From: Bacteroidota bacterium
Lineage (GTDB): Bacteria; Bacteroidota; Bacteroidia; Chitinophagales; Saprospiraceae
DNA: 64,000 bases
Direction: 5' to 3'
Assembly (NCBI GenBank): GCA_016124585.1
Contig: WGNL01000018.1
Location: forward strand, 248,001-312,000
The notes beneath the pieces are model-generated. The model saw only the letters and a list, made by a program, of their open reading frames with translations, was not told the DNA's origin and ran no database searches. Positions 2,532 to 51,139 of the stretch are shown one piece after another (the first letter of the stretch is position 1; the number at the start of each line of letters is the position of its first letter). Position numbers and translations under genes: made by a program.

Positions 2532-2677
2532 CTAGCTTTTGAGTTGTTAGCTGATGCGGCAAAAATAGTTTTTTTAAACACTAAAGGATAATTTGTTTTC
2601 CGTGCCGAAACCTTGTCCTTTTGTCCACGTTAAATCCGTGAAACTGATATATATTTTAGACAGACACCAGAACATTC

Positions 2678-2969
2678 TTGTGGACCAGCAGTTCTCCACA
2701 GGCTTTTCCACAATTGTTGATACTCACAAGAGTTTTTATTTTAATCCGTAAATCTTATTCCAATCAATATTTTACCCACCTAAATAAAACATAAGGTAAA
2801 AAACAGGTTAAGAAACTGTAAACCGAGAAGGTTATCAACAAGTTTTTCAACAAAATCGCAATCTAGGTCGGCGACTCCATTACTCTCCAAGTAGCTGTTT
2901 TTCAACTTCTTACAGAATTATAAAAAAACACTATACTTTTAAAATCAGTTACCAACAGTTTTTTCAACA
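2678..2969. other. Cluster of DnaA-box-like 9-mers (candidate oriC, left part)
   Basis: TTCTCCACA 2692-2700, TTTTCCACA 2704-2712, TGTTGATAC 2715-2723, TTATCAACA 2832-2840, TTTTCAACA 2844-2852, TTTTCAACA 2961-2969, in an AT-rich 450 bp intergenic region. Confidence 0.5.
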
Positions 2970-2979
2970 GTTTTTTGGA

Positions 2980-4056
2980 TTAACTTTTTGAAAATTGGTA
3001 CTTGACGTGCAAAAGCACCGCCAGCAGCACCAAAGCACCCGCCTGATGAATCGCTCCCCAAGTGATGGGAACCCGCCCGATGCAGTTGATAATCGTCATG
3101 ACGCCAAGTAGAAATTGGACTACAAGCATGCCCATCAACATATTTCCCCCCATTTTGAGCTGGGCAGATGTTTCACGCTTTATGATTTTGATAAAAAGCA
3201 AAACGGTCAGCAAGGTGACCACCCAAGCCATGCCTCGGTGCAGCAATTGCACCACCGCTTTGATACTTTGCTGAGGCTCGTAATCCAGCATTTGTTCCGT
3301 GCCGACGGAACCCGCAGTGAGCACTTGCTGAAACCGCTCCCATTCCACGAAAACCGGAAAATGAGGGTGGATAAGTCCCGCCCGCATGCCAGCCATGAGT
3401 CCACCAAATACGATTTGAATGCAGAGTGCGACTGCAGTCCACCAACCCAATTTGCGAAGCGAAACAAAATGGCTGTCAGAAGTACCGGGCTGCGAAGCCC
3501 GCTTCCAAGTCCAAAAAAGATAGCCGAAAACGGCGGTGCCGATGCTCAAGTGAATGGCCAGTTTGTAAGCACTGACCCAAGTGCGGTTGTCGTTGTTCAG
3601 GCCGCTTTTCACCATAATCCAACCAAAGACCGCTTCTAACATCGCCAGTCCGACCACAATGCCAAGGCCCTTCACCAACCAACCTGGCAACTGCTTTTTC
3701 AACAAAAACCAAAGAAACGGAACGAGGAAAACAACGGCAATCAGCCTGGCCCAGAGGCGGTGGAAATATTCCCAGAAGAAGATGAACTTGAATTCCCCGA
3801 GCGTCATATCGGCGTGTAGCGCCTCAAACTGCTTTTTGGCGGCTACCTTGTACTTGTCGAAGGCTACTGTCCATTCGGCCTCGTTGAGCGGCGGTATGGC
3901 ACCTTGGATGGGCTTCCACTCGGTGATGGAAAGCCCCGAATCGGAAAGCCGGGTGACGCCGCCGATGACCACCTGGAGGAAAACCATGAGCACGCCTGCC
4001 AGCAGCCAAACTTGAACGGATTTTGAAACAGGGGTCGGTGTAGTGCTTGTATTCAT
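2980..4056 (-). CDS. ctaA: Heme A synthase, COX15/CtaA family
   Basis: 358 aa multi-TM; VIGGVTRLSDSGLSITEWKPIQGAIPP is the COX15/CtaA signature; FWEYFHRLWAR. Confidence 0.93.
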   Translation of the reverse strand: MNTSTTPTPVSKSVQVWLLAGVLMVFLQVVIGGVTRLSDSGLSITEWKPIQGAIPPLNEAEWTVAFDKYKVAAKKQFEALHADMTLGEFKFIFFWEYFHRLWARLIAVVFLVPFLWFLLKKQLPGWLVKGLGIVVGLAMLEAVFGWIMVKSGLNNDNRTWVSAYKLAIHLSIGTAVFGYLFWTWKRASQPGTSDSHFVSLRKLGWWTAVALCIQIVFGGLMAGMRAGLIHPHFPVFVEWERFQQVLTAGSVGTEQMLDYEPQQSIKAVVQLLHRGMAWVVTLLTVLLFIKIIKRETSAQLKMGGNMLMGMLVVQFLLGVMTIINCIGRVPITWGAIHQAGALVLLAVLLHVKYQFSKS

Positions 4057-4227
4057 CGATCTGAAAATTTTGGGTAAAACTAAATTGTTTTGTTTCCCCG
4101 AAAATCATCCGACTGTCACTTCCAATAGTATTGGTTAGTTTCTTTTTAAAAAATTCATTTGCCAGCTTATTATTAAGGGTGTTGGTACGTGGATAAAAAG
4201 GGGATATTTTTTTGTGAAAAATCCAAA

Positions 4228-4662
4228 TATGGATAACTGCGATTTACGTCCACAGTCCGCCAACATGGTTTGGTGTTCAGCATCAAGGTTTTGCGTCCTT
4301 TTTTCACAGGATGTTGGGAAGCGGCGTGCTGAAAAATTTACATTTCCCCACTTGGAATAACTTTCGGTTAACATTCCCGAAACATGGGATTCCCCACAGG
4401 AACAAGTACTCATGTGTACCTCAGAGAGCGTAAAGCTACACGCTTCAACTGGATGGATGTTGGCAATCTGCTTTGACATCCACAGCCTTCCCCACAAAAA
4501 CTGTGAACAACGCATTTTGCTAAAAGCCTGATTTTAATACCTTTATGAAGAGGGAAAATTAGTAGTGTTGAAAAGGAGAAATTGCGCTTCCCAACGATTT
4601 GTTTTTACGCTCAAAATCTTGTTGTGGAAAGCTCGGTTTGTGTTGTGAATTACTGTGGAAGG
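4228..4662. other. Cluster of DnaA-box-like 9-mers (candidate oriC, right part)
   Basis: TATGGATAA 4228-4236, TTTTTCACA 4300-4308, TTCCCCACA 4390-4398, ACATCCACA 4476-4484, TTCCCCACA 4488-4496, TGTGAACAA 4502-4510, TGTGGAAAG 4623-4631, TGTGGAAGG 4654-4662; about 780 bp without a credible gene. Confidence 0.45.
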
Positions 4663-4836
4663 AGGGGCCTTTTTTGTGAAGAAAAAATATGTCAAAACAG
4701 CCTGTTTGACCAACCTGAAAAGCGCTTGAATTGTTTCTTTTAATCCTCTAGAATGCCTGTAAATACTGGGCTTTCAAATAGAAAGCAATTGTGTTTGATT
4801 AGTTCATTGGCTTCGAAAAAATTATAAAACATACTT

Positions 4837-5517
4837 ATGTGCGGACGATTCTCATTGGCTACTTCCAAAGAAAAATTGCAGCAACAACTTCCCTTTGTGG
4901 AAGTGCCGGAAACGCTGCGACTCAGCTACAATATTGCCCCTACCCAACATGCCTACGTGGTGACCGACGATGACCCCGAGCGCCTGCAATACATCGCTTG
5001 GGGCCTTGTGCCGCATTGGTCTGAAGATGGCAAAAATGCAGGCCGGCTCATCAACGCACGTCGGGAGGGCATCGAAGCCAAACCTTCATTTCGGGTGCCC
5101 ATCCGCAAGCGCCGCTGCCTCGTGCCTGCCGATAGTTTTTATGAGTGGCGAAAAGAAGGGACGGGCAAAATTCCCTACCGTATTTTACTGAAGGACAATG
5201 AGTTGATGTTCTTTGCCGGAGTGTGGGACATCTGGTACAAAGGCGATTATGGCCTCAAGACTTTCTCCATCATCACCACCGATGCCAACGACGATATGTC
5301 CGACCTGCACAACAGGATGCCCGTGCTGCTCACCACGCCCGAACAACAGAAGCGCTGGTTGGAATCCGACGACCTCGACGAAATCCTGATGCTGCTCCAA
5401 ACGCCGCCAGACCATTTAATAAAGAAGTACCGGGTGTCGGAAAAAGTAAATGCCGTCACCAATGACTCGCCCGACATGCATTTGGAGGTGCCGGAGCCGC
5501 CTACCTTGTTTGGATAA
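4837..5517 (+). CDS. SOS response-associated peptidase (SRAP/YedK/HMCES family)
   Basis: 226 aa; MCGRFSLA with catalytic Cys2, NIAPTQ, INARREG, RCLVPADSFYEW, HNRMPVLL. Confidence 0.95.
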   Translation: MCGRFSLATSKEKLQQQLPFVEVPETLRLSYNIAPTQHAYVVTDDDPERLQYIAWGLVPHWSEDGKNAGRLINARREGIEAKPSFRVPIRKRRCLVPADSFYEWRKEGTGKIPYRILLKDNELMFFAGVWDIWYKGDYGLKTFSIITTDANDDMSDLHNRMPVLLTTPEQQKRWLESDDLDEILMLLQTPPDHLIKKYRVSEKVNAVTNDSPDMHLEVPEPPTLFG

Positions 5518-51123: not shown

Positions 51124-51139
51124 TGTTCCACGTGGAACA
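51124..51139. promoter_or_regulatory. parS-like palindrome TGTTCCACGTGGAACA
   Basis: Perfect 16-bp palindrome (18 bp with flanking T/A) matching TGTTNCACGTGNAACA; intergenic. Confidence 0.85.

What the first reader, a model, noticed from the sequence alone, without database searches (positions are those of the whole stretch)
2640..4700. Candidate bipartite oriC flanking ctaA
Two gene-free, AT-rich gaps on both sides of ctaA are loaded with DnaA-box-like 9-mers (TTCTCCACA, TTTTCCACA, TTATCAACA, TTTTCAACA x2; then TATGGATAA, TTCCCCACA x2, ACATCCACA, TGTGGAAAG, TGTGGAAGG). AT-rich stretches (2911-2945) could be the unwinding element. dnaA is absent, but dnaA-unlinked origins are common. The parS pair about 47 kb away agrees with this.
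Basis: partly seen in the sequence, partly recalled or inferred. Interest (0 to 1): 0.7.

Follow-up and report, generated by a model that had tools for sequence, protein, structure and literature searches.

The report
Chromosome replication origin flanking ctaA
Two clusters of binding sites for the replication-starter protein DnaA, on either side of the heme gene ctaA, are very probably where this bacterium and most of its family start copying their chromosome, millions of bases from the dnaA gene at which most complete genome records of the family begin.

Summary
In detail: the gaps on both sides of ctaA are the two densest DnaA-box clusters of the 370-kb contig, far above composition-matched controls. 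(1) Within one family (probably Saprospiraceae), 37 of 45 distinct loci have at least 3 boxes within 1 kb upstream of ctaA, against 0 of 8 outside it. (2) parS lies 5-63 kb from ctaA in 27 of 27 family genomes where both share a contig, including all 12 near-complete ones. (3) In a complete 4.25-Mb relative, sampled GC skew is negative in 20/21 pieces left of ctaA and positive in 16/18 right of it; the interpolated minimum is about 5 kb from ctaA, and dnaA lies near the skew maximum. Two larger chromosomes agree more weakly. That both lobes act together is inferred. It is a DnaA-type origin at an unusual, family-specific address.

The parts
2532..2979 (.). Left lobe of the predicted oriC (downstream of ctaA): DnaA-box cluster, AT 67%
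   Evidence: 10 boxes (<=2 mismatches) against 1.8 in shuffles; 2-5 boxes (<=1 mismatch) within 700 bp downstream of ctaA in all ten own-genus loci; 42 of 49 distinct family loci have >=1
2692..2712 (+). Tandem DnaA-box pair with 12-bp period, TTCTCCACAggcTTTTCCACA
   Evidence: Pair aligned in all ten genus members, first box weaker in one; the pattern TTNTCMACANNNTTNTCMACA occurs 3 times in the whole 6.63-Mb genome, twice here
2832..2852 (+). Second tandem DnaA-box pair, TTATCAACAagtTTTTCAACA
2949..2969 (+). Third, weaker tandem pair with 12-bp period, TTACCAACAgttTTTTCAACA
2911..2945 (.).
   Evidence: 99.9th percentile; variable in the genus
2980..4056 (-). ctaA, heme A synthase; lies between the two lobes
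   Evidence: Pfam COX15-CtaA E=1.7e-77
4057..4836 (.). Right lobe of the predicted oriC (upstream of ctaA): DnaA-box cluster plus predicted unwinding element
   Evidence: 13 boxes (<=2 mismatches) against 3.1 in shuffles; >=3 boxes (<=1 mismatch) within 1 kb upstream of ctaA in 37 of 45 distinct family loci and 0 of 8 non-family loci
4117..4176 (+). Predicted duplex unwinding element: AT-rich tract ending in TTATTATTA (4167-4175); E. coli-type TTATT / DnaA-trio-like TAT-TAT-TAA
   Evidence: Least stable 50-mer of the right gap abuts TTATTATTA or a close variant in the 8 genus members with a comparable gap
4177..4196 (-). GGG spacer, weak DnaA box TGTTGGTAC (4180-4188) and R1-like DnaA box CGTGGATAA = TTATCCACG (4188-4196)
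   Evidence: Conserved next to TTATTATTA in the genus alignment; single occurrence of the composite motif on the contig
4228..4236 (-). DnaA box TTATCCATA
51124..51139 (.). parS TGTTCCACGTGGAACA, copy 1
   Evidence: only two in the genome
51483..51498 (.). parS TGTTCCACGTGGAACA, copy 2

Best explanation
This is the chromosomal replication origin (oriC) of this bacterium, at a location conserved across its family: two DnaA-box clusters flanking ctaA. Proposed mechanism: ATP-DnaA binds the R1-like box TTATCCACG and its weak neighbour (4180-4196). From there it melts the adjacent AT-rich tract (4117-4176) and holds one strand through the TTATTATTA / trio-like motif, so that the helicase can be loaded. 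Boxes further into the right lobe, and the tandem 12-bp-spaced boxes of the left lobe, nucleate further DnaA; they may pair across ctaA by looping, as oriC1 and oriC2 do across dnaA in Helicobacter pylori and Bacillus subtilis. The ParB/parS segregation centre lies 47 kb away, and dnaA itself is remote. Shown here: the box clusters, their conservation and family specificity, parS linkage, and the skew minimum in complete relatives. Inferred: DnaA binding, melting site, helicase loading, looping.
For: Top two DnaA-box clusters of the 370-kb contig and far above AT-matched controls. Clusters flank ctaA through the family: >=3 upstream boxes in 37 of 45 distinct loci against 0 of 8 outside. parS within 5-63 kb of ctaA in 27/27 family genomes with both on one contig, including 12/12 near-complete genomes; on different contigs in the four out-of-family genomes that have this parS (ctaA places). 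Sampled GC skew: in G237 20/21 negative left and 16/18 positive right of ctaA (Fisher P=6e-8), interpolated minimum 1.995 Mb against ctaA at 1.990 Mb; G088 7/9 negative and 9/10 positive (P=0.005); G159 minimum 2.38 Mb against ctaA at 2.35 Mb, weak (P=0.07). Box density peaks at ctaA in all three: 15, 7 and 7 per 600 bp against at most 3, 4 and 3 elsewhere in the sample. Conserved unwinding-type core TTATTATTA-[AG]GG-TGTTGG-GTGGA in the genus, abutting the least stable DNA of the right gap. The genome's DnaA carries the domain IV signature GGRDHSTV, consistent with recognition of TTATCCACA-type boxes (established knowledge).
Against: The window's own contig has weak skew: its minimum is 120 kb from ctaA, ctaA ranks 35th of 62 possible breakpoints, and the net skew merely has the right sign on each side. 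No box is a perfect TTATCCACA. A few family loci have few boxes (L150, L157: none upstream), and 22 of 227 family genomes had no ctaA match, so the link to ctaA is not absolute. Six family genomes have parS and ctaA on different contigs of fragmented assemblies. Skew in the relatives was sampled in 20-kb pieces, not read over whole chromosomes. No DnaA-binding or replication data were available.
Confidence: 0.9

Rival explanations
1. The origin is here, but only the right lobe (upstream of ctaA, with the unwinding core) is the origin proper. The left lobe is an accessory DnaA-titration or regulatory site, so the origin is functionally monopartite. (A refinement of the best explanation, not exclusive of it.)
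For: The right lobe is the more consistently conserved and carries the unwinding-type core. Some members have no boxes within 700 bp downstream, for example G237 with 15 upstream and 0 downstream (L190).
Against: In the window's own genus the left tandem pair is conserved in all ten members. B. subtilis and H. pylori origins also have an essential lobe and an auxiliary lobe (PMC8235120).
Confidence: 0.4
2. The true origin lies elsewhere near parS, within some tens of kb, and the ctaA clusters are a DnaA reservoir (like datA) or DnaA-regulated promoter sites.
For: parS in this genome is 47 kb away and the contig's own skew does not pinpoint ctaA. DnaA-box clusters outside origins exist (established knowledge: datA, DARS).
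Against: In G237, with contiguous 20-kb pieces from about -130 to +130 kb, skew is negative up to the piece holding ctaA and positive from the next piece on, and no other box cluster there exceeds 2 per 600 bp. The window itself has no comparable second cluster. Reservoirs are not expected to sit at skew minima.
Confidence: 0.06
3. The origin is next to dnaA, as in many bacteria, and the ctaA locus only mimics one.
For: One tandem box pair lies 9.5 kb from dnaA on C30 and a few boxes lie just before dnaA. Most complete family records start at dnaA.
Against: In G237 dnaA lies near the skew maximum, and the half-circle contrast has the wrong sign at dnaA in all three chromosomes. Box density near dnaA is at most 3 per 600 bp. 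parS is near ctaA, not near dnaA.
Confidence: 0.02
4. Chance or AT-rich composition makes box-like 9-mers.
For: Most boxes carry 1-2 mismatches.
Against: Shuffle and AT-matched controls, and conservation over the family with absence outside it.
Confidence: 0.01

Closest known systems
Bipartite oriC of Helicobacter pylori and Bacillus subtilis (oriC1-dnaA-oriC2)
   Same: Two DnaA-box clusters separated by one gene; one lobe carries box, GC-rich spacer, trio-like repeats and AT-rich unwinding element (PMC8235120, PMC5043019, PMC10316083)
   Different: The gene in the middle is ctaA, not dnaA; dnaA is about 2.0, 3.8 and 2.3 Mb away in three complete relatives (G237, G088, G159); cooperation of the lobes untested; boxes are TTATCCACA-like rather than the H. 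pylori type
Escherichia coli oriC
   Same: TTATT-type unwinding sequence next to an R1-like box; dnaA not adjacent to the origin
   Different: E. coli has one compact origin with R1-R5, tau, I and C boxes and IHF/Fis sites; those sites were not tested here
Ori-Finder / DoriC predicted origins with lineage-specific indicator genes (PMC10225481)
   Same: Same kinds of evidence: skew minimum, DnaA-box cluster, conserved neighbouring gene
   Different: No held paper found names ctaA as an origin marker or describes the Saprospiraceae origin; the DoriC database itself could not be searched

Membership tests
DnaA-dependent bacterial chromosomal origin (oriC) | Cluster of DnaA boxes in a gene-free region | tested here: met
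DnaA-dependent bacterial chromosomal origin (oriC) | Located at the minimum of cumulative GC skew | tested here: met
   Sampled skew at the homologous locus: G237 clearly, G088 and G159 weakly; the window's own contig is uninformative
DnaA-dependent bacterial chromosomal origin (oriC) | Adjacent AT-rich unwinding element with TTATT or DnaA-trio type motif | tested here: met
   4117-4176 conserved in the genus; the trio match is relaxed (TAT-TAT-TAA/G); melting itself not tested
DnaA-dependent bacterial chromosomal origin (oriC) | Genome encodes a DnaA able to read the boxes | tested here: met
   dnaA on C30 with GGRDHSTV signature; binding itself not tested
DnaA-dependent bacterial chromosomal origin (oriC) | Origin-proximal parS | tested here: met
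   47 kb here; 5-63 kb in 27/27 family genomes
DnaA-dependent bacterial chromosomal origin (oriC) | Replication starts here in vivo; supports autonomous replication | not testable with these tools
   no reads or experiments
Bipartite oriC (H. pylori / B. subtilis type) | Two DnaA-box clusters separated by a gene | tested here: met
   the downstream cluster is absent in some relatives
Bipartite oriC (H. pylori / B. subtilis type) | The intervening gene is dnaA | tested here: not met
   It is ctaA; dnaA is on another contig
Bipartite oriC (H. pylori / B. subtilis type) | DnaA bridges the two lobes by looping | not testable with these tools
   none

The most novel reading that the evidence does not exclude
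A whole bacterial family uses a two-lobed oriC whose lobes are wrapped around a respiratory heme gene, ctaA, with DnaA looping across that gene, while dnaA sits near the replication terminus in at least one member. Initiation would then be uncoupled from early dnaA gene dosage and possibly coupled to ctaA transcription.
Probability: 0.35. Interest if true: 0.7.

Novelty: new variant of a known kind. Interest (0 to 1): 0.55.

Why it matters
It gives a testable origin for a large, environmentally important and little-studied family (activated-sludge and marine Saprospiraceae-like bacteria). It gives a simple marker, ctaA plus parS, for orienting hundreds of draft genomes and for coverage-based growth-rate estimates. 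It shows that complete records of this family which begin at dnaA begin far from the origin. dnaA near the skew maximum of one complete member raises a direct question about how DnaA supply is tuned when its gene is copied late.

Tried and rejected
GC skew of the window's own 370-kb contig: too weak to place the origin. Strict DnaA-trio: only a relaxed TAT-TAT-TAA/TAG match. A first alignment of the gaps used wrongly oriented loci and was replaced; a first skew script failed on file names.

Full report
WHAT IS THERE. The window is bases 248001-312000 of contig C23 (370,046 bp) of a 6.63-Mb, 45-contig genome. ctaA (heme A synthase, Pfam COX15-CtaA) occupies 2980-4056 on the minus strand. None is a perfect TTATCCACA. 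Left gap: 10 boxes with at most two mismatches against 1.8 in shuffles; right gap: 13 against 3.1; 0 of 300 shuffles reach either. Across the contig these are the first and second densest places. Among AT-rich stretches of similar length the mean is 1.6 or 2.8, and none outside this locus exceeds 4 or 6.

PARS AND DNAA. The genome has exactly two parS palindromes, both in this window at about 51.1 and 51.5 kb. dnaA lies on another contig (C30:55934), with a single tandem box pair 9.5 kb from it. The DnaA protein has the usual domain IV signature GGRDHSTV.

CONSERVATION. ctaA was located in 60 of 61 genomes of the first set and then in 205 of 227 family genomes. Among loci of the family (f1), the listing gives 41 of 51 with at least three boxes (at most one mismatch) within 1 kb upstream of ctaA. 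That listing holds six genomes twice, so the count over distinct loci is 37 of 45. None of 8 loci from other families of the order has any. Within 700 bp downstream, 42 of 49 distinct family loci have at least one box and 30 at least two (48 and 32 of 55 in the listing), against 3 of 9 and 0 of 9 outside. Named public loci agree less sharply: Saprospiraceae and Phaeodactylibacter loci carry 1-10 upstream boxes, flavobacterial ones 0-1. That f1 corresponds to Saprospiraceae is an inference from those names, since the genome handles bear none.

PARS LINKAGE. In 27 of 27 family genomes in which ctaA and parS share a contig they are 5-63 kb apart, including all 12 near-complete genomes. In six fragmented assemblies they are on different contigs, which is uninformative. 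In the four out-of-family genomes with this parS they are on different contigs. The genomes are related, so these are not independent events, but a chance placement within 63 kb has only about a 2% probability per genome.

GC SKEW. The own contig has almost no skew; its minimum is 120 kb from ctaA, though net skew is negative left of ctaA and positive right of it. Complete relatives were therefore sampled in 20-kb pieces. G237 (4,250,550-bp chromosome): 20 of 21 pieces left of ctaA are negative and 16 of 18 right are positive (Fisher P=6e-8). The interpolated cumulative minimum is 1.995 Mb, ctaA 1.990 Mb; the maximum is 4.22 Mb, close to dnaA at base 481. G088 (8,371,686 bp): 7 of 9 negative, 9 of 10 positive (P=0.005), coarse minimum 4.09 Mb against ctaA 3.80 Mb. 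G159 (7,507,556 bp): minimum 2.38 Mb against ctaA 2.35 Mb, weak contrast (P=0.07). In each the densest box cluster of the sampled DNA is at ctaA: 15, 7 and 7 boxes per 600 bp against at most 3, 4 and 3 elsewhere. Six of the seven genomes of one to four contigs have dnaA at the start of their chromosome record, so their position 1 is not the origin.

ANATOMY. In the genus alignment the left lobe shows a tandem pair of boxes 12 bp apart (2692/2704) in all ten members (first box weaker in one), followed in several by further pairs (2832/2844, 2949/2961 here). The right lobe shows, reading away from ctaA: an AT-rich tract, TTATTATTA or a close variant (4167-4175), a G-rich triplet, TGTTGG (a weak box), and GTGGATAA or a variant (an R1-like box, 4188-4196). 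The least stable 50 bp of the right gap abuts this motif in the 8 genus members with a comparable gap. It resembles the E. coli order (TTATT beside R1; the orientation is from my own knowledge) and the box / GC-rich / trio / AT-rich module of B. subtilis and H. pylori (PMC10316083, PMC8235120), with trios only in relaxed form (TAT-TAT-TAA or TAT-TAT-TAG).

MECHANISM. Most likely DnaA loads on the R1-like box, melts the conserved tract, and the other boxes of both lobes help assemble the DnaA complex, possibly by looping out ctaA. Location of the origin: supported by convergent sequence evidence (confidence 0.9). Melting site at 4117-4176: inferred (about 0.7). Looping between lobes: inferred (about 0.35).

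NOVELTY. Bipartite origins are known around dnaA (PMC5043019, PMC8235120), and origins remote from dnaA are known (PMC10225481). I found no held paper that places an origin at ctaA or describes this family's origin. The library is partial and DoriC was not at hand, so it could already be listed there as a prediction. I therefore call it a new variant of a known kind.

Noticed in passing
window 4837-5517 (+): A SRAP-domain gene (HMCES/YedK family, which crosslinks to abasic sites in single-stranded DNA) borders the right lobe; in many family loci a SRAP homologue also lies within about 1.5 kb upstream of ctaA, so a single-strand DNA guard gene next to the origin may be meaningful.
   Followed up: partly
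G237 C1:481-966 (L245): dnaA lies close to the GC-skew maximum, that is near the probable replication terminus, in this complete 4.25-Mb family chromosome.
   Followed up: partly
G000 C30:46409-46429 (L128 6409-6429): A tandem DnaA-box pair TTTTCCACAtagTTTTCCACA lies 9.5 kb from dnaA; possible DnaA titration or regulatory site.
   Followed up: no
G135, G136, G128, G127: Family genomes without a detectable ctaA still carry a parS pair; where their origin lies is unknown.
   Followed up: no
window 4135-4515 (-): A 126-aa ORF in the right lobe has no Pfam match and is probably not a gene.
   Followed up: yes
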